Shown piece by piece: positions 741-50,537 of a stretch of 55,213 nt of DNA. The number at the start of each line of letters is the position of its first letter. Positions within the stretch are counted from its first letter, which is position 1. A model generated the notes under the pieces. The model was not told where the DNA came from. It saw only the letters and a list, made by a program, of their open reading frames with translations, and did not search any database. The position numbers and the translations under genes were made by a program. The DNA is from Acidimicrobiaceae bacterium (GTDB lineage Bacteria > Actinomycetota > Acidimicrobiia > Acidimicrobiales > Ilumatobacteraceae), in NCBI GenBank assembly GCA_024641005.1, contig JAHEDX010000019.1, positions 1 through 55,213 on the forward strand, in the 5' to 3' direction.

Positions 741-746
741 TAGGCT
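741..746 (+). promoter_or_regulatory. Leaderless -10 element for the DUF151 gene
   Basis: TAGGCT is followed by 7 nt and then the GTG at 754. This spacing places transcription initiation at or next to the start codon. No convincing -35 was seen. Confidence 0.5.
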
Positions 747-753
747 GATCCCT

Positions 754-1242
754 GTGACTCCGATGGAACTGGTGGGCGTTCGGGTCGAGATCCCGGCCAA
801 CACTCCGATGGTGCTGCTCCAAGAGCAATCCGGCGAGCACCGATTGTTGCCGATCTACATCGGTAGCCCCGAGGCGTCGGCGATCCATTACCAGCTCGAA
901 GGCATCGTGCCACCAAGGCCATTGACCCACGACCTGTTCGTGTCGGTGGTCGAGCTGTTGGGCGCCAAGCTCGACAGCGTCGTGATCACCGAAGTCCGCG
1001 ATCACACGTATTACGCCGAGCTGCATCTCACCACGCCGGCGGGCGAGCGCGTGGTGTCGAGCCGGCCGTCAGACGCGATCGCGCTGGCGGTGCGTTGCGA
1101 GGCCCCGATCTTCGCCGCCGACCAGCTACTCGACGAAGTCGGCCAGATCCCCGAGCCCGAACCGGAAGAAGAGGCCGAGGAGATCATCCACGAATTCATG
1201 GACTTCATCGAGAACGTGACTCCTGAAGATTTCGCAGGCTGA
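754..1242 (+). CDS. Bifunctional nuclease family protein (DUF151)
   Basis: A protein of 162 residues covering the whole DUF151 fold. Visible family features are the N-terminal MELVGVRVEIPANTPMVLLQ strand segment, the RLLPIYIGSPEASAI core, the phrase RPLTHDLFVSVVELLGA and the later SSRPSDAIALAVR segment, all typical of the bifunctional DNase/RNase family. The acidic C-terminus (EPEPEEEAEEI) is also common in actinobacterial members. Biochemistry is known only for distant plant and bacterial relatives; the cellular role here is unknown. The GTG at 754 is preferred over an upstream ATG at 709 because a TANNNT element ends 7 nt before it and similarity begins there. The gene sits between two MerR genes in the conserved actinobacterial order. 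Confidence 0.88.
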   Translation: MTPMELVGVRVEIPANTPMVLLQEQSGEHRLLPIYIGSPEASAIHYQLEGIVPPRPLTHDLFVSVVELLGAKLDSVVITEVRDHTYYAELHLTTPAGERVVSSRPSDAIALAVRCEAPIFAADQLLDEVGQIPEPEPEEEAEEIIHEFMDFIENVTPEDFAG

Positions 1243-1274
1243 CCAGGGGATTCACCCTGAAGTTCACGATGACA

Positions 1275-1303
1275 TTGACGGCGCGCGCGGCCGCGCGTAG
1301 GCT
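1275..1303 (+). promoter_or_regulatory. Sigma70-type promoter of the second MerR gene and gcvT
   Basis: TTGACG at 1275-1280, a 17-nt alternating GC spacer, then TAGGCT at 1298-1303. It predicts an untranslated leader of roughly 110 nt before the MerR start at 1423. This is one of the few conventional promoters with a recognisable -35 in the window. Confidence 0.6.
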
Positions 1304-1422
1304 GACATGTCCGTAGTTACACCGGTGTACGTGCGATCAGATCGGCCGTGACTCGGACCTGGTTGGGGCAGGCAGCTGCGCCCCGGACCATACGGGTGCA
1401 GCACGACGAACGGAGAGACGCG

Positions 1423-1860
1423 ATGAGCGAAGGCTTCAGCGGAACACATGCGGCGAAAGTGGTCGGTATCACCTACCGCCAACTCGACTATTGGGCACGG
1501 ACCGATCTCATTCGGCCGTCGCTGTCCGACGCGTCGGGCAGCGGAAGTCGCCGCTCGTACAGCTACAAAGATCTTCTCGAGCTGCGCGTCATCAAGACGC
1601 TGCTCGACGCCGGTATCAAGCTCGAGTCGGTTCGCGAGGTGTTCAACTACCTCCGCGAACACGTCAGCACCGATATCTCGTCGGCCCACCTGGTGATCAA
1701 CGGCAGTTCTGTCGTGCTCGCCCAGGGAGACGAACTGATCGATGTGCTCGCCAACGGCCAAGGTGTGCTCAACGTCTTGTCGCTGGCAGGCGTCAAGCAC
1801 GAGGTCGACGCCCAGCTCATCCCGCTCGGCTACGACGTGCCCGTAGCGATCGCTCAATAG
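1423..1860 (+). CDS. MerR-family transcriptional regulator (Rv1830-like)
   Basis: A protein of 145 residues with an N-terminal MerR helix-turn-helix. The segment AAKVVGITYRQLDYWART, then GSRRSYSYKDLLELRVIKTLLDAGI, is the wing and dimerisation start of the family. The C-terminal half (DVLANGQGVLNVLSLAGV) matches the small effector-less domain of Rv1830-type regulators. The start at ATG 1423 is fixed by a GGAGAG Shine-Dalgarno at 1412-1417 and by homology; an upstream in-frame ATG at 1348 would add unrelated residues. gcvT begins 8 nt after the stop, so the two are probably cotranscribed. The DNA target is unknown; control of its own promoter or of the flanking genes is possible but not shown by sequence. 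Confidence 0.85.
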   Translation: MSEGFSGTHAAKVVGITYRQLDYWARTDLIRPSLSDASGSGSRRSYSYKDLLELRVIKTLLDAGIKLESVREVFNYLREHVSTDISSAHLVINGSSVVLAQGDELIDVLANGQGVLNVLSLAGVKHEVDAQLIPLGYDVPVAIAQ

Positions 1861-1868
1861 CGGCCGAC

Positions 1869-2912: not shown

Positions 2913-2914
2913 CG

Positions 2915-3604
2915 TCAGGCCGGCTTCTTGGTGGCGGCCTTCTTGGCAGCCGATTTCTTCGGTGCTGCCTTCTTGGCGACCGGCTTCTTGGTGGCGGCCT
3001 TCTTGGCAGCCGATTTCTTCGGTGCTGCCTTCTTGGCCGCCGTCGTGGCACGAGCACCCGGCGTGGTGGTGATCGTCTTGGCCACGGGAGCAGTGGGAGT
3101 CGGCGACGGGGTCGTCGAGCGCTGACCTCCCGATCCGGGCATCCGGAACCCACCGAACAGGCCGCCCGCGTTCTCGGCGAAGCTGGTGAGCGGTGCGAGA
3201 CGCTTCGACATCTCGCTCACGGCCCCCATGAAATCACCCAGCTGATTGGGCAGCGTTGCGAAACCCGGGGAGCTGAGCACATCGACCATCCGTTCGATGT
3301 TCGGAGCCGCTGCCCGCACCGGTGCCTCGAGCAGCTTGGCCATTTCGTCGGCGGCCTGCACCGATCGGGTGATCTGCGGGATCATCGCCCGAATCGGCTC
3401 CTCGATGTCACCCACCAACCGGTTGACCCGCGTCGCCGTCTCGTTGAGATTCTCCATGGTGCGATTCAGGTTCTCGATCGTCCGCAAGAGCTCGTCGGCA
3501 CCTCGACGTATCTGTTCGACGGCACGAATGCCCCCGGCGATCGGCGCCGCCAACAGGTTGATCACATCGGCCAAGCCATCGGATCGTCCGAATTCGTCGT
3601 TCAT
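2915..3604 (-). CDS. Helical protein with Lys/Ala/Pro-rich histone-like tail
   Basis: A protein of 229 residues. The first 130 or so are predicted helix-rich with regular heptad-like spacing ([20 protein letters not shown], and a segment with [20 protein letters not shown]), resembling phasin or apolipoprotein-like amphipathic helices. A Gly/Phe stretch ([11 protein letters not shown]) and a Ser/Thr/Pro linker follow. The last 50 or so residues repeat [18 protein letters not shown], like the tails of histone H1-like and some mycobacterial nucleoid or envelope proteins. The tail is encoded by a nearly exact 60-bp tandem duplication. The start at ATG 3604 is chosen because TAGCCT ends 7 nt upstream. 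It could bind DNA, lipid or polymer surfaces; no specific function is assigned. Confidence 0.7.
2921..3040. repeat. 60-bp tandem duplication in the Lys/Ala-rich tail
   Basis: Two copies of a 60-bp unit begin at 2921 and 2981 and are nearly identical at the DNA level; the second copy diverges only near its end. Such low divergence suggests recent duplication or ongoing copy-number change by slippage. It encodes the repeating [18 protein letters not shown] tail of the minus-strand gene. Confidence 0.9.
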
Positions 3605-3611
3605 GGCCAGC

Positions 3612-3617
3612 AGGCTA
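3612..3617 (-). promoter_or_regulatory. Leaderless -10 for the Lys/Ala-rich protein
   Basis: TAGCCT on the minus strand, 7 nt before the ATG at 3604. No SD is present. Confidence 0.5.
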
Positions 3618-3671: not shown

Positions 3672-5417
3672 CTAGGGCGGCGTCGTCGAGGTACTGGTCG
3701 TCGACGTACTCGACGTGGACGTACTGGTACTGGACGTACTGGTCGTGGATGTACTCGTCGTGCTGCTCACCGGGAGCGACGTCGTGCTCGTGCTGGTGCT
3801 CGTGGTCGACGTGCTGGTGCTGCTGGTGGTCGTCGACGTGCTCGTGCTGGTGCTGCTCGTCGTCGAAGTGCTCGTCGGTAGGGTCGTGGTGGGGGCAGGT
3901 GTCGGCGGCGCCGGCGTCGCCTGGTAAGGGGCGTAGATGACCATCGGTCGATACCGATAGGGCGCATTCCAAGCATCGCGCCGCATGTCGCGAGCGTTGT
4001 TGGAAACGGTGATCAGTACCGAGCCGTAGCCGTCACGCCACGGCAACGGCTGCGCGTGGTAGGTGTTCATCGTGGGATCGCCATTGCGAGGAGGCAGCGG
4101 GCTGTACTGCACTGTCGTCCACGGCCCCCACGCATGGGGAGCCACATCGACCGCCAGATGATCACCCCAGTAACCGTCGACGGCTGTCGCAGCGACCCAC
4201 TGGCCGTCGAGATAGCGCGGTTGCATCGGGTTCTCGGCCCAGAATCGGCTGACGATCGGCACTGCGTCAGCTGGATTCGGCGACCAGCCATCGGCCGTGC
4301 GGTAGTCGGGGGTGGCAGTCAAGCGTCCACGCGGTACGCGTGCCAGCCACATGTCGGTCGCCGAGTGTGGACCGTTCCAGAAGCCGCCTTCGCTGAGGAG
4401 GTTCTGCTCGAAGGTGTTACCGAACAGGTACGTGTAACTGCTGTCGGAGCTGACCGCATAGCCATAGATCGGGGCGACCCCGCTGTTCGGCGCCAGGAAG
4501 AACGAGGTTCGTCGAAGTGTCGCAGCGTCGTAGCTCGCCAGGAAGGTTCGCTGCGGATGCCAACCCAGACCGTCGGGCGGGTCGGGGTCATAGGGGTCCT
4601 TGATCATCTCGGCCCAGAACACCCACAGCTGACCGTCGACCAGTTCGCCTCCCATTGGCCAGTACCACTTGGTACGGAGGTCGGCACTTCCGTCACCCAC
4701 CTCGAACGCGTCGGGCCGATCCGCCGAGCCACCGTGCAGCAGCTGGAAACACGCACCCTGCTGTACCAAGGCAGCGTTGTGCACGAATCGCGCCGACCCG
4801 AGGGTGTCGACGGTGCCGGAGTGATCGACAAACGCGTCCTGGAAGATCCAGAGGTATCGGTCGCCGCCCAGTCGATAGACGTGCTGGTAGTCCCACCCGA
4901 GTACCGGGCCCACCCGATCCGCCAGAAAGCGGTCGAGCGATGCCACCGACACGTCCCGGGCGCATCCCACGTCGGTGCCGAGATGTCCGCCGGCGGTCAC
5001 CCTCGTGCTGGCCGCCCACGGCGGGGGAGCGATCGTGCTGGGCGGCGGCTCGTCGACGTCGATCTCTGCGGGGGCCGGACGGGCAACCACGCCGGGCGCG
5101 TCCTCGTCGATGTCGAGTTCGTAATCGTCGAGACCCGGCACCGTGACGGACGGCCGTGTGATCGTGGTCGTGGTCGTACTGGATCTGGAGACCGGACCGA
5201 TCGTCGTCGACGTGATGTCATCTCGGGCCACCGCGCTCGTGCTGCTCGAGGGAGCGCTCGAAGACGTCGGCGCCGTGGCATCGGCACCGGTCAGTCGATC
5301 TGGTGTCTCCTCCCCGGTGACGAGCACGACTCCGAGCAGGAGCCCCAGCACCACCAGCCCGCCGACGAGCACGAACCACCGCCGGTCTGCTGAACGCATG
5401 CGGTCGCTCAGGGTCAC
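3672..5417 (-). CDS. Membrane-anchored propeller-like extracytoplasmic protein with Ser/Thr tail
   Basis: A protein of 581 residues. A short basic N-terminus is followed by one membrane segment (about residues 14-35, WFVLVGGLVVLGLLLGVVLV), so the rest lies outside the cell. A Ser/Thr/Pro linker (35-130) precedes a globular domain of about 370 residues with repeated aromatic motifs (YLWIFQDAFV, KWYWPMGGELVDGQLWVFWA, YTYLFGNTFEQNL, SRFWAENPMQPRYLDGQW). That resembles five-bladed propeller families such as DUF4185 or DUF5005, although no catalytic set is recognisable. The last 70 or so residues are almost pure Ser/Thr. The GTG start at 5417 lies 6 nt after TACCTT. It may bind or cleave a surface glycan; that is inference from fold resemblance only. 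Confidence 0.7.
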   Translation of the reverse strand: MTLSDRMRSADRRWFVLVGGLVVLGLLLGVVLVTGEETPDRLTGADATAPTSSSAPSSSTSAVARDDITSTTIGPVSRSSTTTTTITRPSVTVPGLDDYELDIDEDAPGVVARPAPAEIDVDEPPPSTIAPPPWAASTRVTAGGHLGTDVGCARDVSVASLDRFLADRVGPVLGWDYQHVYRLGGDRYLWIFQDAFVDHSGTVDTLGSARFVHNAALVQQGACFQLLHGGSADRPDAFEVGDGSADLRTKWYWPMGGELVDGQLWVFWAEMIKDPYDPDPPDGLGWHPQRTFLASYDAATLRRTSFFLAPNSGVAPIYGYAVSSDSSYTYLFGNTFEQNLLSEGGFWNGPHSATDMWLARVPRGRLTATPDYRTADGWSPNPADAVPIVSRFWAENPMQPRYLDGQWVAATAVDGYWGDHLAVDVAPHAWGPWTTVQYSPLPPRNGDPTMNTYHAQPLPWRDGYGSVLITVSNNARDMRRDAWNAPYRYRPMVIYAPYQATPAPPTPAPTTTLPTSTSTTSSTSTSTSTTTSSTSTSTTSTSTSTTSLPVSSTTSTSTTSTSSTSTSTSSTSTTSTSTTPP

Positions 5418-5423
5418 GACGAC

Positions 5424-5429
5424 AAGGTA
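5424..5429 (-). promoter_or_regulatory. Leaderless -10 for the propeller-like gene
   Basis: TACCTT on the minus strand, 6 nt upstream of the GTG at 5417. Confidence 0.45.
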
Positions 5430-8338: not shown

Positions 8339-8366
8339 TGGACCTCCGATTGACATCGTTGTTCGT

Positions 8367-8560
8367 GCCCCCGCTGTCATCGGTACCTGAGAGTTTCACC
8401 CTGGAAAGGGCTTTCCCCGTGGGTGAGGTGGTGCGGACACCGCCTGCTTTTCAGCGTTGCCTCGCCCGACCGGTCCGTGTGCCTGAGAGATTCCGGGGTG
8501 GTTGCTCCTTCGGCGTCGTCACCACTGGCTGTGGCGCCGACTCTCCCGAGCGGGTTCTGC
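8367..8560 (-). ncRNA. Tandem glycine riboswitch upstream of gcvP
   Basis: On the minus strand the first aptamer shows GGGAGAG (8543-8549), then GCCGAAGGAGCAA near 8502-8516, and CTCTCAGGCA (8480-8489) followed by GGAC. These are the conserved blocks of the glycine class. The second aptamer shows GGGGAAAGCCC around 8410-8420, AACTCTCAGG (8386-8395) and the terminal GACAG at about 8373-8378. Together they form the two-aptamer arrangement known to bind glycine and switch on glycine-cleavage genes. The element ends about 30 nt before the chosen gcvP start, with the SD at 8342-8347 downstream of it. The expression platform (terminator versus SD masking) could not be resolved by eye. Confidence 0.93.
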
Positions 8561-8576: not shown

Positions 8577-10979
8577 CACGTTCGTACAGCCGGACACCGT
8601 TACCTCGAAACGTTCGGTCTCGGCCGCACGTAGGGCGTCGACCTCGGTCCACATCGGCAGTGGGGTCTGGGGGGCTGGGCGCCATTCGAGCAGGCGGAAG
8701 TTGTCGATCGCGACAGTCCCACGAAAGGAGGGCGCGGCGAGCACCGTGACCATCACCGCATCAGCGGTGGCGGTTCCCGAACTCGCGAACACGGCCGGGT
8801 CGATCGGGACCACCATGCCTCGCCACTCCTCCGTCTGCCCCGTGTCGACGGGGAGCTCGACACTTCGGAGCAGCCCGGAGGTCGGGTCGCTCGTGGGGTC
8901 CGACGCATCCACGTAGAACACATCGAGGCGAATCGTGACCGCCTCTGCCCGGTCGGTGCGAGCATCGAACTCGAGCGTGTACGACGGGGTGCCATCAGCG
9001 GGGTTGCCGCTGTCGGAGTCGTAGATCCGATGGGCGGCGAGCGTCGATCGGGCAACGAAACGTGTCATCACCGTCCGGTTGGCGTTGGTGTCCAGTTGCA
9101 GCGCGTCGTCGGTGGGGTCGGGGCTGGATCCTTGTGTCAGGCCCCAGCTGTCGACGTCGTCGGGCGTGACCCAGTGCATCGGTGATCCGCGCTCGCCGTC
9201 GGCCGTCATGTCGTCGAACCGCCCCCAGCCGAAGAGGTCGACACCATATTCGACACCTTCGGGCAGCTCGTCGGCGCGCAGGGCGAGGCACGGCGGGACG
9301 GATGCCGATTCGATCGGGCCGGCCTGCATCGCGATCTTGTTCTCGATGCGCCCGTGTCGGATGACGCCGGTGTTGCGATCGAAAGCGACAGTGGCAGGCT
9401 CGACACCCGGGATCACCTCGTCGAGCAACACGCCGCCGACCGAGAACCCTTCGATCCGCTCGCTCTCCGCGGGCAGCGCCGACCGCGTGTCGATCAGGCG
9501 CACGATGCGTTCTGCGGCGTCGCCCGCGACGGGTACCGGTCGGTACCCGACCAGCATGACCGGCAGCAACGATGCCTGCACCACGCCGGCATCGTCGATC
9601 ACGACCCGCAGCAGGGCGGAGGGAAAGGTCGCGAGGAAGTCCTGATCGAACACGAGGTTGCCCAGGCTGTACGCGATCAGCCGCCCTTGGTACCACTCGA
9701 CACCCTGCAACACGTGCGGGTGATGCGAGATCACCATGTCGGCACCGTCGTCGATCGCATCGTGCGAGATCTGTCGGACGAACGTGCCTTTGACGGTGGC
9801 GAACTGGTATCCCGCGTGGAACTGGACGACCACGGCGCCGGCGCCTTCGGATCGGAGCCGCTCGATCTCTGCCTTGACCACATCGCGGTCGTAGGCCGCC
9901 GCGCCGCCGTGCCCGCGGCGCGCGACCCAGTCCTGCAGTTCGGGATAGGCGTCTTGTGCCGTGAGGGCGGCCCACAACGCAGCGTCTGCCTCAGGAGCCA
10001 GGTCCGGCTCGATCGAGCGATATATGTCCCAGGCGTCTCCCGGCCGACGCCTCGCGGTCGGAACGAATGACGCATCACCGACCGCACCGAACCCGAACAT
10101 TCGAGCGTCATATTGCCAAGCATCAGCTGGGGCCAGGTCGACGGGGACCGCTGCCTCGCCAGAGGGCAGGCTGTCGTTGACGAAATCGCCGTCGACGGTG
10201 GTGACCGAGATGACTCCCACCTGTCGACTGCCGGCCGTGACCAGTGCCCCCCGGATCGCATCTGTCGGCGTCAGCCCGGCGCCGGCGTGTGGCATGCCGG
10301 CATCGTCGAGGATGCCGAGGGTCGATCGAACGCCGGCGTCACGCCAGTCGTAGGCGTGGTTGTTGCCGAGCGTGACGAGATCGACGCCGAGTTCGTCGAA
10401 CGCGGCCAGGATCGACGGGGGCGACTGCAGCAAGAATCGCTTGCCGGCGTACGCGTCGTCATCGGGTAGCTCACCGATGACCGTCTCGGAGTTCACGATG
10501 GTGGCATCCGCTGCGGCGCTGATCACCCCGAGGTCCGCCACCACCGAACGCGCCCCGGTGTCGCTGTCGGCGATCGCGGTACCGAGCTGCGTCGGCTCTT
10601 GGTACCGGCGGCCGAGCATCACGTCACCCCCGAAGTGCACCACGCTCCGCGGACCATGAGGGCCCTGTCGGGCGAGCAGCGTGACCGTCACGTCGTCGTC
10701 ACGAGGCGCGACGACGACAGGTTCGGGCAGCATGCCCTCGGCGGTGACGACACCGGCGACCGGCCCGCTGATCTCGATCTCGATCCGGCCGGATGCATCG
10801 GCGGCGTGCGAGACGCCACCGAACTCGTACGAGGCCGAGACGACCGGATCACCCGCCTCGTCCACCAGTAGCACCACGACGGGATCCACGACGTCGAGGC
10901 GGGTCGACCGTTGTGGCCCGAACGAACATGCCGGCAGGACGATCACCGCGCACAGCAGGAGAGCTGGGACCCGCTTCAT
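8574..10979 (-). CDS. CapA-family lipoprotein with C-terminal beta-sandwich-like domain
   Basis: A protein of 801 residues. A lipoprotein signal peptide is clear: basic start, hydrophobic stretch and lipobox LPAC with Cys18. After a small carboxypeptidase-regulatory-like domain (about 30-105) comes the CapA/PgsA metallophosphatase-like domain: FGGDVMLGR (the metal-binding GD motif), NSETVIG, TLGNNHAYDW, VVQFHAGYQF and ISHHPHVLQGVEWY. CapA proteins are tied to poly-gamma-glutamate capsules, but many are of unknown substrate, and no capB or capC is nearby. The last 200 or so residues (YTLEFDARTD ... GTVAIDNFRLLEW) look like a carbohydrate-binding jelly roll. Anchoring outside the membrane and a glycan-binding tail suggest a cell-surface polymer hydrolase; this is inference. 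The ATG start at 10979 follows TACTGT by 9 nt. Confidence 0.85.
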   Translation of the reverse strand: MKRVPALLLCAVIVLPACSFGPQRSTRLDVVDPVVVLLVDEAGDPVVSASYEFGGVSHAADASGRIEIEISGPVAGVVTAEGMLPEPVVVAPRDDDVTVTLLARQGPHGPRSVVHFGGDVMLGRRYQEPTQLGTAIADSDTGARSVVADLGVISAAADATIVNSETVIGELPDDDAYAGKRFLLQSPPSILAAFDELGVDLVTLGNNHAYDWRDAGVRSTLGILDDAGMPHAGAGLTPTDAIRGALVTAGSRQVGVISVTTVDGDFVNDSLPSGEAAVPVDLAPADAWQYDARMFGFGAVGDASFVPTARRRPGDAWDIYRSIEPDLAPEADAALWAALTAQDAYPELQDWVARRGHGGAAAYDRDVVKAEIERLRSEGAGAVVVQFHAGYQFATVKGTFVRQISHDAIDDGADMVISHHPHVLQGVEWYQGRLIAYSLGNLVFDQDFLATFPSALLRVVIDDAGVVQASLLPVMLVGYRPVPVAGDAAERIVRLIDTRSALPAESERIEGFSVGGVLLDEVIPGVEPATVAFDRNTGVIRHGRIENKIAMQAGPIESASVPPCLALRADELPEGVEYGVDLFGWGRFDDMTADGERGSPMHWVTPDDVDSWGLTQGSSPDPTDDALQLDTNANRTVMTRFVARSTLAAHRIYDSDSGNPADGTPSYTLEFDARTDRAEAVTIRLDVFYVDASDPTSDPTSGLLRSVELPVDTGQTEEWRGMVVPIDPAVFASSGTATADAVMVTVLAAPSFRGTVAIDNFRLLEWRPAPQTPLPMWTEVDALRAAETERFEVTVSGCTNV

Positions 10980-10988
10980 CGCCGTTCA

Positions 10989-10994
10989 ACAGTA
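10989..10994 (-). promoter_or_regulatory. Near-leaderless -10 for the CapA-like gene
   Basis: TACTGT on the minus strand, 9 nt upstream of the ATG at 10979. Confidence 0.4.
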
Positions 10995-11111: not shown

Positions 11112-11891
11112 TCAGTGCCACTCGGGTGACCGGACCCAGTTGTCGAGCCGATCGAATACTGCGAGCACCAATCGGTCGATCCTGCGATCGGTCATCGCGA
11201 CGCGATCCGGGTGGGCGGGGTCGAGGAGATCGGGGTGGTACGTGGTGTATGCCGTCCGGAGGAAGGGGCGATTGCCCACCTCTTCGTTGCATGCTGCGAT
11301 GAACCGATCGCGATGAGGGTGTCGCCACGGCACATTGATGCCGTCGGCGCTGCGCCCCGCGATCCGGCTCAATCGCTCGCTGTTCACACCGACGATGCGG
11401 GTGGGCAGGGGAGTGGGATGCGGGAACGAGGCGAATCTCTCGTCGCGATCGGTCGACCACTGGCTGGCGGCCAGATCGAGCACCTCCTCGACGCGGGCGT
11501 GCCGCGCCTCGATCGATGGTTCGACATATGCGCCGACGGTGTGCTGCTCGACGGCCCATGAACCGCTGGGAGAGGTGCCGGCGCCGATACCCAGGTGGAA
11601 TTGGCGCTCGGACATCAGCGACACCGAAGCTGCGGCGGATATCAACGTGCCGACTTGCCGGTTCCAGACATTGGCGACCATCGTGCCGAGTTCGACCCTG
11701 GTCGTCACTTGTGCCAGCGCCCCGAGCAGTGTGAAGCACTCGAGCATCGTCGAGCCACCGAGTGGCACGCCTGCGAGATGATCGAACACGAACACCGCAC
11801 CGAAGCCCCGCTCCTCCGCGAGCGACGTGGCCACCTTCAACGTCGCCCAGTCGGTGTTGGCCGGGCTGAACTGGACGTCGACGACGGTCAT
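11112..11891 (-). CDS. LLM-class flavin-dependent oxidoreductase
   Basis: A protein of 259 residues with the bacterial-luciferase-like TIM barrel: VDVQFSPANTDWATLKVATS, GFGAVFVFDHLAG, RVELGTMVANVWNRQVGTLI and QFHLGIGAGTS are the conserved strands that bind FMN or F420. It is shorter than the usual 300-350 residues and lacks part of the C-terminal barrel insertion. The substrate cannot be told, and F420 versus FMN is not decidable by eye. ATG 11891 follows TACCCT by 7 nt with no SD, so it probably heads its own leaderless transcript. Neighbours give no pathway context. Confidence 0.8.
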   Translation of the reverse strand: MTVVDVQFSPANTDWATLKVATSLAEERGFGAVFVFDHLAGVPLGGSTMLECFTLLGALAQVTTRVELGTMVANVWNRQVGTLISAAASVSLMSERQFHLGIGAGTSPSGSWAVEQHTVGAYVEPSIEARHARVEEVLDLAASQWSTDRDERFASFPHPTPLPTRIVGVNSERLSRIAGRSADGINVPWRHPHRDRFIAACNEEVGNRPFLRTAYTTYHPDLLDPAHPDRVAMTDRRIDRLVLAVFDRLDNWVRSPEWH

Positions 11892-11898
11892 CGGAAGC

Positions 11899-11904
11899 AG
11901 GGTA
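11899..11904 (-). promoter_or_regulatory. Leaderless -10 for the LLM oxidoreductase
   Basis: TACCCT on the minus strand, 7 nt before the ATG at 11891. Confidence 0.5.
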
Positions 11905-14009: not shown

Positions 14010-14449
14010 GGCTGCGGTTCCTCCTCCAACAGGGACAGTTGGATATCGGTCCGCCCGCAGTGCCGCTGGAACGGGTTCTGGTGCTGCGCACCCCTGCCCA
14101 CCCCCAGAGCAGGGCATATGGCCCCATCAGTCTTGACGATTTCCAGAAGAAATGTCGGTCGCGTGAAGTCGTATTGACATAACGAGGATTATGGGCGTTG
14201 TGCCGAGAGGGGCCGCCTGCACGGGATGGTTGTATCTGCTCACAGTCGGCCGACTCGGCGCCCACCCGACGACCCACGGCCCCGGTGCGGCACGATCCCT
14301 CGGGGGTTCCTCGCCTGGAGCCGACCCACGCGACCATCGACGATGCATCGACGGGTCCGCAGGAACGCCGCCATCGGCACGACCATGCCGGCATGCAGCA
14401 TCGTGGCCCCTTCCGCTCCGCTGATGAGTCCCCCGAAGCGGCTATATCG
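14010..14449. other. 440-bp intergenic region upstream of the M23 gene
   Basis: No convincing gene is seen. Next to the M23 start is a 6-bp hairpin (TCCAAC 14025-14030 and GTTGGA 14038-14043) that abuts and partly overlaps the GGAGGAGG SD. At the far end is a perfect 14-bp palindrome, ATCGTCATGACGAT (14446-14459), which runs into the end of the next gene. I could not match the leader to any known riboswitch. The middle is featureless by eye. Confidence 0.6.
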
Positions 14450-36369: not shown

Positions 36370-37127
36370 AGAGAGAAGGAATGCAGGCCGACGGAGGCAA
36401 CCTCGAGACCGGCGCGCACAGCGCGCGCCATGGCGACGGCCCCAGGCGAATCCCCGTGAATGCAGATCGATCGCGCACGAACAGCCACCCGGCTGCCGTC
36501 GATCGCGGTGACCATGTGCTCGGTGGCGATCGTGACAGCTCGATCGGCAACCGCGGCCGGATCGGTGATAACGGCGCCCGGTTCGGAACGTGGCACCAGC
36601 CGTCCATCAGGCAGGTACGCGCGATCGGCGAACGCCTCGGCGACGGGTTCCATCCCCATCTCGTCGGTAAAGGTGAGCAACGACGAGCCGGGAGCGCCCA
36701 ATACGGCCATCGAAGGGTCGTACTCGTGTGCTGCTTCGACGACGGCCCGGGCCTGCGCAGGATGGCTGCTGCACGCATGGTAGAGCGCCCCGTGCGGCTT
36801 GACGTAGGCCACCCCGACTCCCGCGACCTGTGCGAACCCGTCGAGTGCCCCGAGTTGGTACAACACGGCGTCGCGCAGCTCGGCAGGATCGATATCGATG
36901 AAGCGACGGCCGAATCCCGCCAGGTCGGGATATGAGACATGGGCCCCGATCATGACGTTGCGGTCGGCGGCTTCCTGGCAGATCCGTCGCAGCGTGGACG
37001 GGTCGCCCGCGTGAAAGCCGCAGGCGATGTTGGCGCTGGTGACGAGATCGAGCATGGCCACGTCGTCTCCGAGCGTCCAGGTGCCGAACGACTCGCCCAG
37101 ATCACTGTTGAGATCGATCGCTGCCAC
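36366..37127 (-). CDS. pxpA: 5-oxoprolinase subunit A (LamB/YcsF family)
   Basis: A protein of 253 residues. LamB/YcsF marks are DLNSDLGESFGTW, SANIACGFHAGDPSTLR, IGAHVSYPDLAGFGRR, and YVKPHGALYHA; it ends with ICIHGDSPGAVAMARAVRAGLE. It is the catalytic barrel of 5-oxoprolinase, which opens 5-oxoproline to glutamate. The GTG at 37127 follows TACGAT by 6 nt with no SD; an upstream frame stays open but is not conserved. It sits 66 nt after prcA on the same strand, directly inside the Pup-proteasome locus. Confidence 0.93.
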   Translation of the reverse strand: MAAIDLNSDLGESFGTWTLGDDVAMLDLVTSANIACGFHAGDPSTLRRICQEAADRNVMIGAHVSYPDLAGFGRRFIDIDPAELRDAVLYQLGALDGFAQVAGVGVAYVKPHGALYHACSSHPAQARAVVEAAHEYDPSMAVLGAPGSSLLTFTDEMGMEPVAEAFADRAYLPDGRLVPRSEPGAVITDPAAVADRAVTIATEHMVTAIDGSRVAVRARSICIHGDSPGAVAMARAVRAGLEVASVGLHSFSL

Positions 37128-37133
37128 GCGACG

Positions 37134-37139
37134 ATCGTA
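37134..37139 (-). promoter_or_regulatory. Leaderless -10 for pxpABC
   Basis: TACGAT on the minus strand, 6 nt before the GTG at 37127. It means pxpABC can be expressed apart from the proteasome genes. Confidence 0.45.
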
Positions 37140-38869: not shown

Positions 38870-40354
38870 CTATGCGCCGAGTCGATCCAGAAGTTCGGAT
38901 GCGGTGTCGCTCTCGTCGATCAAGTTAGCCACGTGTTCGGCAGTACCGCGCAGCGGCTCCATCATCGGCACGCGTCGGAGCGGATCGCGCCCGACGTCGA
39001 ACACGAGCGAATCCCAGTTCGCCGCCACCACTTCGCCGGGGTACTTCTCGAGGCAACGACCTCGGAAATAGGCCCGTGTCGTCGTTGGCGGCTGTGTCAT
39101 CGCCGCTTCGGCATCGGCCGGGTCGACCAGGCTGTCGAGCCCCGCCCTGAGTGCGAGGCACCTGTCGACGCGCATGTCGTGATACTGAAGGTCGATCGCT
39201 TTCAGCTTGGGCGAATCTGCGTCGAGGCCGTGGCGTTCGGCATAGCCGGTGACCAACCGGCGCTTGGCGACCCAGTCGACCCAATGAGCAACGGACTCCG
39301 GTTCGGTCTCGAGACCTGCCAGCACCTGCTCCCAGCGGGCCAGCACGTCGGCGCCAACCTCGTCGCCGACGACTGCGAGGCCATGCGTCTGCTGGTACTT
39401 GCAGGCCTGTTCGAGCAGGCCCCACTGGATCTCGAGCGCGGTCGCTCGACGTCCGTCGCGCATCAGGATCGAGCGCTGCAGCGACGGATCATGGCTGACC
39501 TGGCGTATCGCCGGGACCGGATTTCCCAGCAGGAACTCGTCGCCGAACTGGTCGTCCTCGATCATCGCGAGGACGATCGAGGTGGTGCCGACCTTCAGGT
39601 AGGTGGCGACCTCACTCATGTTCGCGTCGCCGACGATCACATGCAGTCGGCGGTATTTCTGAGGATCGCAGTGCGGCTCGTCGCGAGTGTTGACGATCGG
39701 CCGCTTGAGCGTCGTCTCGAGCCCCACCTCCTCTTCGAAGAAATCGGCACGCTGGCTGAGCTGATACGCGACATCGTTCGGTTGCCGATTGGGTTGCTCG
39801 CAGCCGACCTTTCCGGCACCGCAGAAGATCTGCCGCGTGACGAAATGCGGCGTGATATGGCTGACGATGCGCCCGAACGGGGTGGCACGATCCAACAGGT
39901 AGTTCTCGTGGCAGCCGTAGCTGTTGCCCTTGCCGTCAGAGTTGTTCTTGTACACGACCAACTCGGCGCCGTTGTCGAGGATCTCTGCCGCATACCTCAT
40001 CGAGGCACGCACGATCTCGTCTGCGGCCCGGTCCCAGCGCACCGCCTCGGCAGCAGTGGTGACCTCGGGGGTGGAGATCTCGGGGTGGGCGTGATCGACG
40101 TAGTAGCGGGCTCCGTTGGGCAACACGGCATTGACCAGCGACGTCTCGATCTCGGGTGGAAAGACGTCGTCGAGGTTGAAACCCCTCGCGTCATTGGCCG
40201 GCGTCTCGTCCTCGAAGTCCCAGCCGATCTTGCGCGACGTGGCGTTGACGTAGGCGTTGATCAGCAATGACGAAGCCGACACCGGGTTGTTGTCACCGCC
40301 ACGCACGACGATGCCGTACTCGGTCTCGATGCCACAGACCTTCGGGATCGCCAT
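38870..40354 (-). CDS. dop: Deamidase/depupylase of Pup
   Basis: A protein of 494 residues. Dop deamidates the C-terminal Gln of Pup and removes Pup from substrates. It resembles PafA along its length (GIETEYGIVVRG, YYVDHAHPEISTPE with Asp87, [40 protein letters not shown]), but has the Dop-specific insertion between residues 40 and 75 (RKIGWDFEDETPANDARGF) that PafA lacks. TAGGGT ends 6 nt before ATG 40354, so the dop-pup-prcB-prcA transcript is probably leaderless. Confidence 0.97.
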   Translation of the reverse strand: MAIPKVCGIETEYGIVVRGGDNNPVSASSLLINAYVNATSRKIGWDFEDETPANDARGFNLDDVFPPEIETSLVNAVLPNGARYYVDHAHPEISTPEVTTAAEAVRWDRAADEIVRASMRYAAEILDNGAELVVYKNNSDGKGNSYGCHENYLLDRATPFGRIVSHITPHFVTRQIFCGAGKVGCEQPNRQPNDVAYQLSQRADFFEEEVGLETTLKRPIVNTRDEPHCDPQKYRRLHVIVGDANMSEVATYLKVGTTSIVLAMIEDDQFGDEFLLGNPVPAIRQVSHDPSLQRSILMRDGRRATALEIQWGLLEQACKYQQTHGLAVVGDEVGADVLARWEQVLAGLETEPESVAHWVDWVAKRRLVTGYAERHGLDADSPKLKAIDLQYHDMRVDRCLALRAGLDSLVDPADAEAAMTQPPTTTRAYFRGRCLEKYPGEVVAANWDSLVFDVGRDPLRRVPMMEPLRGTAEHVANLIDESDTASELLDRLGA

Positions 40355-40360
40355 GCGCGA

Positions 40361-40366
40361 ACCCTA
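40361..40366 (-). promoter_or_regulatory. Leaderless -10 of the dop-pup-prcBA operon
   Basis: TAGGGT on the minus strand, 6 nt before ATG 40354. It lies between the dop start and the stop of the upstream acyl-CoA dehydrogenase. Confidence 0.5.
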
Positions 40367-40400: not shown

Positions 40401-41630
40401 TCACCCGGCGAGCAGCGCCTTGGCGATCGCCCGGGTCTGGATCTCATCGGTGCCCGCATAGATCTGCAGGACCTTCGCGTCGCGGGCGAGTTGTTCGACG
40501 TGGTACTCGGCCATGTAGCCGTTGCCACCGTGCAGCTGCACGGCCTCGAGCGCACAGGCCGTCGCCTGCTGGGCCGAGTAGAGCTTCATCGCCGAGGCCT
40601 CCGCGAACGTCATGGTCCGACCGGCATTCGACAGCTCGATCGTGCGGTACACCAGATTCTGGATGTTCATGCGGGCCACTTCCATCGTGGCCAACTTCTG
40701 CTGGATCAGCTGGAACTCGCCGATCGGTTGGCCGAACTGCACGCGCGACTTGGCGTACGCGACCGACAGCTCGAGACACTGCTCGATGATGCCCAGCGCC
40801 ATCGCTGCCACGCCGGCGCGCTCTTGCTGGAACGTGGATTTCGCTCCGTCGCGGCCACCCTTCGGTGGGTCCTCGTCCTCACCGATCAGGCGGTCCCGCC
40901 CGACCCGAACGTCATCCAGAAACAGCTCTCCGGTCGGCGAGGAATGCATTCCCATCTTGCGTAACGGCTTCGTCTGGGTCAGGCCGGGCATCCCGGTATC
41001 CAGCACGAAACTGAGGATCTTGCGTTCTTTCGGATCATTGCCCTCATCCAGCTTGCAGATGAAGACGATCGTGTCGGCGTACGGCCCGTTGGTGATGAAC
41101 GTCTTGTTGCCGTTCAGCAGGTATTCGTCACCATCCCTCCGCGCCGTCGCGAGCATCGACCCGAACGCGTCCGAGCCTGAATTCGGTTCGGTGATGGCCC
41201 ATGCTCCGACTTTGCGAAGGGTCAACAGGTCAGGGACCCACCGCTCCTTCTGAGCGATGGTCCCCTTGCCGTTGATCGCCGATGCGGTCAGCCCCGCAGA
41301 TACCCCCAGCGCCGTGACGAGCCCGGGACATTGACGACACAACTCGATGGTCGGGATCAGCGTGAATCCGGCGTCGCCACCGCTGTGGCGGCTCGGCTTG
41401 TCGTCGACCGACGCCGTGCCGGCGGCCACTGCCTTCTCGTGCTCGAGCCGCTTCCAAAATGTCGTTTCGGCCTGATCGCCGATCCCGAACGTGGCGTACA
41501 TCTTGCGAAGGACCTCGTACGGCGGTGTGTCTCCGTGCTCGAGGTCGTCGCGGATCGGGATGATCTCCTTGGCGATGAAGTCCTTCATCGCATCGCGGAT
41601 CATCTGGTGTTCCTCGGACCACTCGTACAT
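40401..41630 (-). CDS. Acyl-CoA dehydrogenase
   Basis: A protein of 409 residues with the three-domain acyl-CoA dehydrogenase fold. Marks: GAWAITEPNSGSDAFGSMLA (FAD and substrate contact), NGNKTFITNGPYADTIVF, KMGMHSSPTGELFLDDVRV, RVQFGQPIGEFQLIQQKLA and QLHGGNGYMAEYHVEQLARD. The usual Glu in the C-terminal YEGT motif is replaced by Ala (IYAGTDEIQ), while Glu270 lies in FQQERAG. That is the arrangement of isovaleryl-CoA and long-chain types, where the base comes from helix G. ATG 41630 follows TACGCT by 6 nt. It precedes dop on the same strand but has its own promoter. Confidence 0.9.
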   Translation of the reverse strand: MYEWSEEHQMIRDAMKDFIAKEIIPIRDDLEHGDTPPYEVLRKMYATFGIGDQAETTFWKRLEHEKAVAAGTASVDDKPSRHSGGDAGFTLIPTIELCRQCPGLVTALGVSAGLTASAINGKGTIAQKERWVPDLLTLRKVGAWAITEPNSGSDAFGSMLATARRDGDEYLLNGNKTFITNGPYADTIVFICKLDEGNDPKERKILSFVLDTGMPGLTQTKPLRKMGMHSSPTGELFLDDVRVGRDRLIGEDEDPPKGGRDGAKSTFQQERAGVAAMALGIIEQCLELSVAYAKSRVQFGQPIGEFQLIQQKLATMEVARMNIQNLVYRTIELSNAGRTMTFAEASAMKLYSAQQATACALEAVQLHGGNGYMAEYHVEQLARDAKVLQIYAGTDEIQTRAIAKALLAG

Positions 41631-41636
41631 ACGCCG

Positions 41637-41642
41637 AGCGTA
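41637..41642 (-). promoter_or_regulatory. Leaderless -10 for the acyl-CoA dehydrogenase
   Basis: TACGCT on the minus strand, 6 nt before ATG 41630. It shares base pairs 41641-41642 with the opposite -10 on the plus strand. Confidence 0.5.
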
Positions 41643-41646
41643 GAGT
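41641..41646 (+). promoter_or_regulatory. Leaderless -10 for the second LLM oxidoreductase
   Basis: TAGAGT, 8 nt before the GTG at 41655. It is divergent and overlapping with the element of the acyl-CoA dehydrogenase. Confidence 0.45.
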
Positions 41647-41654
41647 TGGGAGTC

Positions 41655-42659
41655 GTGCCGGGCCCAACTCCCAACTCGATTCCGCTGTCGGTCCTCGATC
41701 TGTCCGTCGTGCGCGACGCAGGTACGTCCGGAGATGCCTTGGCAGACACGACGCGGCTCGCACAGCGGGCCGACACGCTCGGCTTCCATCGGTTCTGGGT
41801 CGCCGAGCACCACAACATGGGCACCGTCGCCAGCACCACACCGAGCGTGTTGATCGCCCATCTCGCTGCGGCGACCTCTCGGATCAGGGTCGGTTCCGGT
41901 GGCGTGATGTTGCCAAATCACGCACCACTGGCGATCGCCGAGCAGTTCGCCCTGCTCGAAGCGCTGCATCCGGGACGTATCGATCTCGGGATCGGCCGGG
42001 CCCCCGGCACCGATCCGACGACCGCCGCAGCGTTCGGCCGCCACCCCCACGAGAGCGTCGAGAAGTTCCCGCGTGATCTGATCGACGTGATGGGCATGTT
42101 GGGAGACCGGCGAGGCGCAGACGGCCTGTGGTCGCGGCTCCGCGCCACCCCGGTGGCATCCTCGACGCCCGTCATCGCCCTGCTCGGCTCGTCCGGCTAC
42201 AGCGCCCAACTGGCAGGCATGCTCGGCCTGCCGTTCGCATACGCCCACCACTTCGACACCGGCGCCACCGACATCGCTTCACAGCTCTACCTCGACCATT
42301 TCGAGCCGTCCCCAGTGCTCGAGCGGCCCTACCTGATCGTGGGCGCCGGTGCACTCGCTGCCGGCACCGACGAGGAGGCCGAGCGGATCGGTCTGCCCAG
42401 TCGGATTCTGCGGCTCGGCATCCGCACCAACCGCCGACACCCACTGCTCAGCCCCGACGCAGCACAGCAGCACCCCGACGCCGAGTCGGCACGCAACATG
42501 CCCACCGAGCAACTGATCGGCAGCGCCGAACGCGTGATCGAAGGATTGCGTGACCTGGTGCAACGCACCCAGGCCAACGAACTCATGCTCACGGCCGCTA
42601 CCTATGACGTCACCGACCGGATCCACAGCCTGGAGTTGATCGACGCAGCCTGGAGTTGA
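41655..42659 (+). CDS. LLM-class flavin-dependent oxidoreductase (MsnO8-like)
   Basis: A protein of 334 residues. It starts with PLSVLDLSVVRDAGTSGDAL, then LGFHRFWVAEHHNMGTVAS, VGSGGVMLPNHAPLAIAEQF and GRIDLGIGRAPGTDP. The LSVLDL and AEHH phrases are typical of the MsnO8 subgroup, FMN-linked luciferase-like monooxygenases. The substrate is unknown. The GTG at 41655 is 24 bp from the divergent dehydrogenase start, so both genes must use promoters inside each other's leader-free region. Confidence 0.85.
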   Translation: MPGPTPNSIPLSVLDLSVVRDAGTSGDALADTTRLAQRADTLGFHRFWVAEHHNMGTVASTTPSVLIAHLAAATSRIRVGSGGVMLPNHAPLAIAEQFALLEALHPGRIDLGIGRAPGTDPTTAAAFGRHPHESVEKFPRDLIDVMGMLGDRRGADGLWSRLRATPVASSTPVIALLGSSGYSAQLAGMLGLPFAYAHHFDTGATDIASQLYLDHFEPSPVLERPYLIVGAGALAAGTDEEAERIGLPSRILRLGIRTNRRHPLLSPDAAQQHPDAESARNMPTEQLIGSAERVIEGLRDLVQRTQANELMLTAATYDVTDRIHSLELIDAAWS

Positions 42660-44854: not shown

Positions 44855-44993
44855 GGGCACCTCCCACGGTCGTGCTGCGGTCGTTCGGAACTTACACCGT
44901 GCCCCCTGTCGAAACCCATCATGTTCGTTTCCGCGAACCGGCCCGGGTAAAGTGCTGCGGTACACGCACCCCTCCCAAGGAGACACGAATCAC

Positions 44994-45239
44994 ATGAAGG
45001 TCTGGATCGACCAAGATCTCTGCACGGGCGACGGCCTGTGCGAGGAAATCGCCCCCGATGTGTTCACGCTGCTCGACGACGGCCTTGCCTACGTGAAGGA
45101 GGGCGACAAGATCTACGCAGCCGCCAAGGGCAATCCGCAGGGTGCCGAGGGCCTCGCGGAGTTTCCCGACAGCCAGCTCGACTCGGTCATCGAGTCTGCC
45201 GAGGAATGCCCCGGCGAATGCATCTTCATCGAGCCCTGA
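44994..45239 (+). CDS. Small ferredoxin
   Basis: A protein of 81 residues. Cysteines are Cys10, Cys16, Cys72 and Cys76, in DLCTGDGLCEEIAPDVF and EECPGECIF. The three expected 3Fe-4S ligands of P450-type ferredoxins fit the first, second and third; Cys76 is an extra one two residues beyond the usual Pro, which could allow a 4Fe-4S cluster. The middle is long and unusually Ala/Gly/Glu-rich. The ATG has an AAGGAG SD 12 nt upstream. A strong terminator follows. No P450 or reductase gene is in the window, so the partner is unknown. Confidence 0.88.
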   Translation: MKVWIDQDLCTGDGLCEEIAPDVFTLLDDGLAYVKEGDKIYAAAKGNPQGAEGLAEFPDSQLDSVIESAEECPGECIFIEP

Positions 45240-49325: not shown

Positions 49326-49328
49326 CGG

Positions 49329-49547
49329 TCAGACTCGTCGGATTTCGACGAACGTCGTCTTCTTGCGTCCGCTGCGCTTGCCGAGCACGAAGACCAGGAT
49401 CAGCAGGGTCACGCCCAGGACGGTGCCGACCGTGAGCAAGGTACTCTTCTTGTCGTCGACACGACCCTGGATGTCGCCTTGGAACGCCTTCAGCTTGTTC
49501 TCGAGGTCCTCGGCGGAGATCTTGGCAGGGATCACGGTCTTGCTCAT
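49329..49547 (-). CDS. Small single-pass membrane protein
   Basis: A protein of 72 residues. It has a hydrophilic helical N-terminus (ISAEDLENKLKAFQGDIQG), one membrane helix (LLTVGTVLGVTLLILVFVLG) and a short basic tail (KRSGRKKTTFVEIRRV). It starts at ATG 49547, overlapping the stop of the holin-like gene by 4 nt. The topology is tail-in with a cytoplasmic coiled segment. Function unknown. Confidence 0.65.
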   Translation of the reverse strand: MSKTVIPAKISAEDLENKLKAFQGDIQGRVDDKKSTLLTVGTVLGVTLLILVFVLGKRSGRKKTTFVEIRRV

Positions 49548-49888
49548 GGCTTGTCTTCCTTGTTGAGGAACGTCTTGTTGATCTGCAGGACGGCGAGCGC
49601 CAACAACAGGACGCAGACCACCAGCACGATCACATAGGGGATCCACGACAGCCGACCGGTCGCCACCCTGCCCCATTCGGACTGGATCAGCCGCAGCAGA
49701 CCCAGAAGCAGCAGCGACAGACCGATGCCGATCAGGATCGCTCCGGCAGCGCCGGCACCGATCCACCTGCCGGCGCCCTTGAGGGGCCCGACGGTCTCCT
49801 GCTTGGCATAGGCCTTGACGTAGTCGATGACCTCGCCGACCGACGCTTGGTCGCGGCGCGAGGAGGGGTTCGGCGTGTCGTCAACCAT
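49544..49888 (-). CDS. Holin-like superfamily III membrane protein
   Basis: A protein of 114 residues. A helical cytoplasmic segment (SVGEVIDYVKAYAKQETVGPL) is followed by two membrane helices (AGAAGAILIGIGLSLLLLG and WIPYVIVLVVCVLLLALAVL), the layout of the actinobacterial phage_holin_3_6 group. Chromosomal members are not phage genes and often sit beside small membrane proteins like the next one. ATG 49888 follows TAGAAA by 6 nt, a weaker leaderless -10. Confidence 0.72.
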   Translation of the reverse strand: MVDDTPNPSSRRDQASVGEVIDYVKAYAKQETVGPLKGAGRWIGAGAAGAILIGIGLSLLLLGLLRLIQSEWGRVATGRLSWIPYVIVLVVCVLLLALAVLQINKTFLNKEDKP

Positions 49889-49894
49889 GAGTTG

Positions 49895-49900
49895 TTTCTA
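49895..49900 (-). promoter_or_regulatory. Possible leaderless -10 for the holin-like gene
   Basis: TAGAAA on the minus strand, 6 nt before ATG 49888; it departs from TANNNT at the last base. Confidence 0.3.
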
Positions 49901-50524
49901 TCACGTCCGACGGAATTCCAGCACAGCCGCCGCGTCATCCAGCACGGCAATGAGCGTCTCGACACGCTCGGCCAAACCGGGAGCAGCGAGCAGTCGCTGG
50001 CGGTCGGCGACGCCGAGTGGTGACAACGAGCCGAGGTGGTACACGGCAAGTCGCGGATCGGGGCTGATCTCGGAGTCGGGTGGCGGCGCGAGGTCGCCCA
50101 ACGACCGGACGAGTTCGTTCAGTTCCTTGACTCGGTCGTGGAGCTCGACGATCTGCGCTGTTGATACGTCGGAGAGGTCACCCTCGTCGGGCCACAGCTC
50201 GATGTCGGCCAACGGGTACGGATCATCGGGCAACCAGGCGTTGACCCGGAACCGCTCGGTTCCGACCGCGGCCATGGCGTAGCGACCGTCGGGCGTGACC
50301 TGCAGGTCGATGATGCGCGCCACCGTCCCGATCGTGGAACGGGCGTCTCCTCCGCCGACTTCGTGCCCACGTTCGATCATCACGACGCCGAACTCCGGAG
50401 GGTTCACATCATCGCTGAGGATGTCGACCACCATCTGCCGGTACCGCTCCTCGAACACGTGGAGCGGCAGCACGGCACCCGGCAACAGGGTCATCCCCAA
50501 CGGGAACATCGGCATCACCGCCAT
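49901..50524 (-). CDS. LON peptidase substrate-binding domain protein
   Basis: A protein of 207 residues consisting of the LON N-terminal domain alone: MPMFPLGMTLLPGAVLPLHVF, then ERYRQMVVDIL and FGVVMIERGHEVGGGD. There is no ATPase or protease domain, so it is not a protease; such single-domain proteins occur widely in actinobacteria and their role is unsettled. ATG 50524 follows TAGGTT by 7 nt, favouring it over GTG 50551. It lies at the end of the block containing the wall-enzyme genes but is transcribed on its own. Confidence 0.88.
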   Translation of the reverse strand: MAVMPMFPLGMTLLPGAVLPLHVFEERYRQMVVDILSDDVNPPEFGVVMIERGHEVGGGDARSTIGTVARIIDLQVTPDGRYAMAAVGTERFRVNAWLPDDPYPLADIELWPDEGDLSDVSTAQIVELHDRVKELNELVRSLGDLAPPPDSEISPDPRLAVYHLGSLSPLGVADRQRLLAAPGLAERVETLIAVLDDAAAVLEFRRT

Positions 50525-50531
50525 CGGCCCG

Positions 50532-50537
50532 AACCTA
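50532..50537 (-). promoter_or_regulatory. Leaderless -10 for the LON-domain gene
   Basis: TAGGTT on the minus strand, 7 nt before ATG 50524. Confidence 0.45.

What the first reader, a model, noticed from the sequence alone, without database searches (positions are those of the whole stretch)
741..50537. Nearly all operon-heading genes show a leaderless promoter signature
At least 21 genes that open a transcription unit have a TANNNT hexamer ending 6-9 nt before the start codon, with no Shine-Dalgarno. Examples are TAGGCT-N7-GTG (754), TACCGT-N7-ATG (18600, 21383), TACCGT-N6-ATG (pafA), TAGGGT-N6-ATG (dop) and TAGACT-N6-GTG (tatB). The same rule corrects starts at 18600, 19176, 33463 and 37127. 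Leaderless genes are common in actinobacteria, but this density is high. Conventional leaders remain at MerR 1423, whiB, the M23 gene and gcvP, which suggests they are kept where leader control is needed.
Basis: partly seen in the sequence, partly recalled or inferred. Interest (0 to 1): 0.72.

Follow-up and report, generated by a model that had tools for sequence, protein, structure and literature searches.

The report
Widespread leaderless genes in an actinobacterium
In this actinobacterial genome many genes seem to start being copied into RNA right at their first codon, with no ribosome-binding leader; the signature is real and frequent here, but the mechanism is already well known in bacteria.

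Summary
The window holds 21 TANNNT-N(6-9)-[A/G]TG strings on both strands; 20 sit at gene starts and one at a probable small gene. On a hand list 21 of 33 heads carry it; in a 261-kb sample of the genome 61 of 154 called heads do, with 1 out of frame. Shuffled upstreams give 0.4 of 32, observed 20. The motif avoids operon-internal genes and Shine-Dalgarno sites, is cut off below N6, tends to have a C just before the start codon, and is conserved in homologues (pafA 66 of 84, dop 46 of 65, tatB 22 of 22). It is the TA-led leaderless class of Zheng 2011, known across Actinobacteria and Deinococcus. Density is high: 35% of heads in eight Acidimicrobiia-type genomes, 16% in 17 other phylum members, with overlap. 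'Leaders are kept where leader control is needed' is shown only for gcvP (glycine riboswitch). In passing: six of 41 doubly leaderless divergent pairs have overlapping -10 boxes 17-25 bp apart. No 5' ends are mapped.

The parts
741..756 (+). TAGGCT-N7-GTG start 754, bifunctional nuclease (BFN) domain gene
3602..3617 (-). TAGCCT-N7-ATG start 3604 (start rests on the motif)
5415..5429 (-). TACCTT-N6-GTG start 5417 (start rests on the motif)
10977..10994 (-). TACTGT-N9-ATG start 10979
11889..11904 (-). TACCCT-N7-ATG start 11891, F420-type LLM oxidoreductase
14816..14830 (-). TACTAT-N6-ATG start 14818, probable small Cys-rich protein 14450-14818 missed by the gene caller
17633..17648 (-). TAGCCT-N7-ATG start 17635, peptide chain release factor 3
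18598..18613 (-). TACCGT-N7-ATG start 18600, MurR/RpiR-type regulator; start agrees with HexR profile position 1
19163..19178 (+). TACCGT-N7-GTG start 19176, ribokinase, 21 bp after whiB
21381..21396 (-). TACCGT-N7-ATG start 21383, hexapeptide transferase
21446..21462 (+). TACCGT-N8-ATG start 21460
23140..23154 (+). TACGCT-N6-ATG start 23152, enoyl-CoA hydratase
27027..27043 (-). TACGAT-N8-GTG start 27029, ThyX-domain protein; motif in 25 of 32 homologues
31943..31957 (-). TAGACT-N6-GTG start 31945, tatB; motif in 22 of 22 homologues
33461..33478 (-). TACCGT-N9-GTG start 33463, signal peptidase I
34877..34891 (-). TACCGT-N6-ATG start 34879, pafA; motif in 66 of 84 homologues
37125..37139 (-). 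TACGAT-N6-GTG start 37127, pxpA; motif in only 2 of 8 homologues
40352..40366 (-). TAGGGT-N6-ATG start 40354, dop; motif in 46 of 65 homologues
41628..41642 (-). TACGCT-N6-ATG start 41630, acyl-CoA dehydrogenase; -10 box overlaps the divergent one by TA
41641..41657 (+). TAGAGT-N8-GTG start 41655, MsnO8-type LLM oxidoreductase, divergent partner of 41630
50522..50537 (-). TAGGTT-N7-ATG start 50524, LON substrate-binding domain protein; motif in 2 of 7 homologues
8364..8558 (-). tandem glycine riboswitch before gcvP (GTG 8338, Shine-Dalgarno GGAGG): conventional leader
1412..1425 (+). Shine-Dalgarno-led start of the MerR/HspR-like gene (ATG 1423)
14007..14027 (-). Shine-Dalgarno GGAGGAGG before the M23 peptidase start ATG 14009
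44977..44996 (+). Shine-Dalgarno AAGGAG before a ferredoxin start ATG 44994

Best explanation
These are leaderless genes. A housekeeping sigma-factor -10 box (TANNNT, no detectable -35) lies 6-9 nt, mostly 6-7, before the start codon, so that RNA polymerase starts at the A or G of ATG/GTG (or within about three bases of it) and the mRNA begins with its start codon; the ribosome then initiates on the 5'-terminal codon without Shine-Dalgarno pairing. Operon-internal genes, and heads without the box, are led by Shine-Dalgarno or by nothing recognised. Shown here: motif, spacing, frame, gene position, exclusion of Shine-Dalgarno, conservation. Inferred: the sigma factor, the transcription start at the start codon, and the mode of ribosome entry.
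For: Frame test 61 of 154 heads in frame, 1 and 0 out of frame; 3 of 40 internal genes. Sharp lower limit: 9, 6, 32, 36, 20, 11, 7 at k=4-10 without any gene calls, as a transcript beginning at the start codon demands. The base before the start codon is C in 62% of 294 TA-led heads, against 44% of 473 other heads, 46% of 253 internal genes and 35% of all RTG; it stays beside the start codon at k=6, 7 and 8, like the C at -1 and T at +2 of mapped mycobacterial start sites (PMC3898074, passages). Shine-Dalgarno-like 4-mers at 14 of 294 TA-led heads, 168 of 490 other heads and 117 of 256 internal genes; background 12.6% (101 of 804). No column above 0.10 bit in the 40 nt before the -10. Conservation at homology-set starts, k=5-10: pafA 66 of 84, dop 46 of 65, tatB 22 of 22, thyX-like 25 of 32; pup, inside the operon, 2 of 53 with Shine-Dalgarno in 44 of 53 (15 window genes had four or more usable homologues). 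In Deinococcus the same motif at the same spacing was shown by experiment to be the -10 of leaderless genes (PMC12340547, passages and section 11).
Against: No mapped 5' ends are at hand for this organism, and my searches found none for its class (listings capped). At k=7-9 a leader of one to three bases is not excluded. Not every site is conserved: pxpA 2 of 8, the gene at 50524 2 of 7. The motif model also called 30297 and 32049, but the exact motif is found at 0 of 19 and 3 of 38 homologues, so those two are doubtful. Some listed starts rest on the motif itself. Counting strings without gene calls, 8.7 of the window's 21 could be background, though none is out of frame with a called head.
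Confidence: 0.94

Rival explanations
1. The TANNNT is a promoter, but the main transcript starts elsewhere (an additional upstream promoter with an ordinary leader) or a few bases upstream, so the genes are only partly or nearly leaderless.
For: Spacers of 8-9 nt occur (20 and 11 strings, 14 and 6 of them at called starts, background about 10 per spacer). Of 490 heads without the motif 273 also lack a recognisable Shine-Dalgarno site, so other initiation modes or wrong starts exist in these genomes.
Against: The C just before the start codon at k=6, 7 and 8, the cut at N6 and the depletion of Shine-Dalgarno below background at TA-led heads (14 of 294) point to the start codon itself as the mRNA 5' end.
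Confidence: 0.05
2. The TA motif is a translation signal (an unstructured or S1-type ribosome site), not a promoter.
For: None beyond its position.
Against: The three middle bases are mostly G or C (TACCGT, TAGCGT, TACGCT, TAGCCT commonest), and operon-internal genes, which need a ribosome site but no promoter, mostly lack it (3 of 40 in this genome; 13 of 269 in the eight class genomes).
Confidence: 0.01
3. Chance, created by choosing start codons to fit the motif.
Against: Frame control 61 to 1 and 0, shuffles 0.4 against 20, and a peak at k=6-9 without gene calls.
Confidence: 0.001

Closest known systems
TA-led (leaderless) genes of bacteria, Zheng et al. 2011 (PMC3160421, passages)
   Same: TANNNT about 12 bp before the start, no Shine-Dalgarno, first genes of transcripts, Actinobacteria nearly all positive (86 of 89 genomes)
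   Different: They report 19.2% of genes on average in Actinobacteria (2.3-29.8). By the bare exact motif 64 of 194 head and internal genes (33%) qualify in this genome's sample; methods differ, so the comparison is rough.
Leaderless transcripts of M. tuberculosis (PMC3898074, passages) and C. glutamicum (PMC3890552, passages)
   Same: Transcripts starting at ATG/GTG; TANNNT -10 and no -35 in M. tuberculosis; 26% of genes with a primary start site and 33% of mRNAs by mapping
   Different: There measured, here inferred from sequence.
-10 motif next to ORFs in Deinococcus-Thermus (PMC12340547, passages and section 11)
   Same: Same motif, about 6-7 bp before the ORF; tested by mutation and reporters; about 30% of ORFs on average, stated to be the most prominent of all phyla studied
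   Different: Here an actinobacterial class reaches 27% of head and internal genes by exact motif, net of out-of-frame hits; two Deinococcus plasmid stretches gave 18% of 40 heads by my measure.
Bidirectional (pseudo-symmetric -10) promoters of E. coli (PMC12825309, passages)
   Same: Overlapping -10 boxes; divergent start sites most commonly 18, also 10 and 23 bp apart
   Different: Here both genes would be leaderless, so 17-25 bp between two start codons is the whole control region.

Membership tests
TA-led leaderless genes | TANNNT about 12 bp upstream of the start codon with narrow spacing | tested here: met
   k=6-9 peak, frame control 61 to 1 and 0
TA-led leaderless genes | No Shine-Dalgarno site | tested here: met
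   14 of 294 TA-led heads, below the 12.6% background
TA-led leaderless genes | First gene of a transcription unit | tested here: met
   61 of 154 heads against 3 of 40 internal genes; 289 of 784 against 13 of 269 in eight class genomes
TA-led leaderless genes | ATG or GTG start | tested here: met
   In the motif model for this genome TTG is 1% of leaderless starts; the exact search itself allowed only ATG and GTG
TA-led leaderless genes | Transcription start on the start codon | not testable with these tools
   Needs 5'-end mapping
TA-led leaderless genes | Translation of the leaderless mRNA | not testable with these tools
   Needs ribosome profiling or N-terminal proteomics
Bidirectional promoters | Overlapping divergent -10 boxes | tested here: met
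   6 of 41 doubly TA-led divergent pairs in eight class genomes, gaps 17-25 bp
Bidirectional promoters | Divergent RNAs from one site | not testable with these tools
   Needs 5'-end mapping
Glycine riboswitch leader (RF00504) | Aptamer above the gathering score before a glycine gene | tested here: met
   58.6 and 34.2 bits against 32, before gcvP

The most novel reading that the evidence does not exclude
In Acidimicrobiia-type actinobacteria leaderless initiation is the main mode for transcription-unit heads (about half by the motif model), at or above the level of Deinococcota that is now called the highest among bacterial phyla, and it allows very small divergent units in which two leaderless genes are driven by overlapping -10 boxes, mostly sharing the TA of one symmetric 10-bp element (ANNNTANNNT), so that 17-25 bp between two start codons is the whole control region.
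Probability: 0.4. Interest if true: 0.45.

Novelty: new member of a known kind. Interest (0 to 1): 0.3.

Why it matters
It extends a known mode of gene expression, at high frequency, to a large group with few cultured members, with practical results: gene starts can be set from the motif (it moved several starts here and exposed one probable gene my caller missed), and many operon heads can be read from raw DNA. If confirmed by 5'-end mapping, the class would be a good place to study how far a cell can do without leaders and how divergent genes share one promoter.

Tried and rejected
A motif mixture model gave leaderless fractions of 0.52 for heads of this genome (null 0.01-0.03) and 0.52-0.61 in five relatives of genus, family, order and class, but in several distant genomes its motif drifted away from TANNNT and it assigned 0.20 in E. 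coli, so it is not used for comparison between groups; the exact motif with a frame control is. By that measure E. coli K-12 (50 kb) gives 2 of 28 heads in frame and 4 and 5 out of frame, a Rhodococcus plasmid stretch 1 of 19 and a Streptomyces plasmid stretch 0 of 15.

Rfam for hidden leaders: nothing beyond the glycine riboswitch. The excess counted without gene calls separates the class from the other genomes too (8 against 17, p=0.0024), but has no power in low-GC or short samples (E. coli 237 +- 267 per Mb, Deinococcus plasmids 27 +- 99); G055 in the class is low (94 +- 59).

Against the density claim: two of 17 other genomes reach 0.37 and 0.32 of heads, and a third, with only 7 heads, 0.71. 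Doubling the sample lowered G063 from 0.31 to 0.23 and G031 from 0.47 to 0.45. The window is richer than the rest of its genome.

Against the shared-TA pairs: symmetric strings flanked by two start codons number 8 against 1.5-2.4 expected in the eight class genomes, but 9 against 5.0-5.5 in the 80 pafA loci and 9 against 6.7-8.5 in other phylum members. Being TA-led on both sides is about as frequent as independence predicts (41 of 206 pairs, expected 36.7). Three of the 80-locus cases are one orthologous pair upstream of pafA.

My caller missed whiB, pxpB, a YegS-like gene and the ORF at 14450-14818, and set the M23 start wrongly, so the head lists are not perfect. Own-genome 16S: not found in the whole-genome search, a 5' fragment of about 90 bases in the sample; none found in G031, but the complete CCTCC anti-Shine-Dalgarno tail was seen in G063 and G074.
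Full report
What the window is. The 55,213-bp window is contig 117 of a 4.14-Mb, 175-contig genome, 94% complete. Its PafA is 90-91% identical to those of Ilumatobacter and Ilumatobacteraceae MAGs, so I place it with Ilumatobacteraceae, class Acidimicrobiia (by record titles and kinship labels, no tree made). Genes include gcvT, gcvP, prfC, a ribokinase, a thyX-like gene, tatB, tatC, signal peptidase I, pafA, pxpA, prcA, prcB, dop and the proteasome ATPase (pup by position only, tatB and the ribokinase just under the curated cut-offs).

Is the signature there? Yes. I called genes by coding potential alone, without any upstream signal. In the window plus 206 kb sampled from the same genome, TANNNT followed by 6-9 bases and an in-frame ATG/GTG is found at 61 of 154 head genes (divergent, or more than 40 bp after a same-strand gene), against 1 and 0 in the two wrong frames, and at 3 of 40 operon-internal genes. 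Without gene calls the count by spacer length rises from 9 and 6 at k=4-5 to 32, 36, 20 and 11 at k=6-9 and falls to 7 at k=10. In the window there are 21 such strings on both strands; other spacers would predict 8.7. Twenty are at starts I had listed and the last, at 14818(-), opens a Cys-rich 122-aa ORF with no Pfam match above cut-off, whose one homologue among the held loci, from another family of the class, also carries TATAAT-N8-GTG. Shuffling the 32 listed upstreams gave a mean of 0.41 hits and at most 3 in 2000 trials; observed 20.

How much of the genome? By exact motif 18 of 29 called heads in the window and 43 of 125 in the rest of the sample (p=0.0105). By hand, with missed genes added, 21 of 33 in the window; that list includes two genes only 21 and 39 bp after their neighbours and leaves out a GNAT gene and edge genes. 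The motif model gives about half of heads (0.52, n=160; null 0.01-0.03). So 'nearly all' is too strong.

Why leaderless. (1) The -10 to start distance is that of a -10 box to its own start site, and it is cut off below 6. (2) The base before the start codon is C in 62% of 294 TA-led heads against 44% and 46% at other heads and internal genes and follows the start codon, not the box, at k=6, 7 and 8. (3) TA and Shine-Dalgarno avoid each other: 14 of 294 TA-led heads, 168 of 490 other heads, 117 of 256 internal genes, background 12.6%. (4) No -35 column exceeds 0.10 bit; no conserved -35 was found in M. tuberculosis either (PMC3898074, passages). (5) At starts fixed by homology alone the box recurs: pafA 66 of 84, dop 46 of 65, tatB 22 of 22, thyX-like 25 of 32, whereas operon-internal pup has Shine-Dalgarno in 44 of 53 and the box in 2; but pxpA only 2 of 8 and the gene at 50524 2 of 7 (hits of 45% identity or more that reach the N-terminus; 15 window genes had at least four; most held loci surround pafA, so genes near it are over-represented). 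The anti-Shine-Dalgarno tail is intact in two relatives, one of the same genus and one of the same family, so leadered genes can use it. The transcription start and ribosome entry are inferred.

Moved starts. 18600 agrees with position 1 of the HexR profile and 37127 with the N-terminus of a PxpA profile. 19176 and 33463 are plausible but not independently fixed; 19176 lies 21 bp after whiB.

Leaders. gcvP has a tandem glycine riboswitch ending shortly before its Shine-Dalgarno. MerR, M23 and a ferredoxin at 44994 have Shine-Dalgarno sites. No other riboswitch reached the gathering score in the window or in 686 kb of this genome and two genus mates, so known leader elements do not explain most of the heads without the motif.

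Is the density unusual? Eight Acidimicrobiia-type genomes (own, two of the genus, one of the family, one of the order, three of the class) have 35.4% of 784 heads net of out-of-frame hits, range 0.23-0.45; 17 other members of the phylum 16.3% of 550, range -0.04 to 0.71; dropping the two with fewer than 20 heads leaves 15 with 15.8% and a maximum of 0.37; Mann-Whitney p=0.0011, or 0.0002 with that drop. The ranges overlap. The 80 pafA loci with named records give 32.7% of 614 heads. Counting head and internal genes together, 27.4% against 11.5%. Published: 19.2% of genes on average in Actinobacteria, up to 29.8 (PMC3160421, passages); about 30% of ORFs in Deinococcota, called the most prominent of all phyla studied (PMC12340547, section 11). 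Methods differ.

In print. The phenomenon itself is well known.

An extra. In the class genomes 41 of 206 divergent pairs are TA-led on both sides (36.7 expected if independent); six of these lie 17-25 bp apart with overlapping -10 boxes, four of them sharing exactly the central TA (ANNNTANNNT), among them 41630/41655 in the window. Bidirectional promoters with start sites 18, 10 and 23 bp apart are known in E. coli (PMC12825309, passages). The combination with two leaderless genes fits but rests on few cases.

Noticed in passing
window 41628-41657; L020, L109, L107, L142, L144; L031, L061, L083 (upstream of pafA): Divergent leaderless pairs 17-25 bp apart whose -10 boxes overlap, mostly sharing one TA (ANNNTANNNT); looks like a symmetric bidirectional promoter with no leader on either side.
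   Followed up: partly
window 14450-14818 (-): A probable 122-aa Cys-rich gene missed by coding potential but marked by TACTAT-N6-ATG; homologue in L199 with TATAAT-N8-GTG.
   Followed up: partly
window 8364-8558 (-): Tandem glycine riboswitch before gcvP, the only Rfam riboswitch at gathering score in about 740 kb scanned.
   Followed up: yes
window 30297 and 32049: The motif model calls these leaderless from degenerate boxes, but the exact motif is found at only 0 of 19 and 3 of 38 homologues.
   Followed up: partly
eight class genomes, heads without the TA motif: 273 of 490 head genes without the TA motif also lack a recognisable Shine-Dalgarno site, so a third initiation mode or wrong starts remain.
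   Followed up: no
window 38647 (prcB): prcB inside the pup-proteasome operon has the TA motif in 25 of 70 homologues, suggesting an internal leaderless promoter for the proteasome core in some lineages.
   Followed up: no
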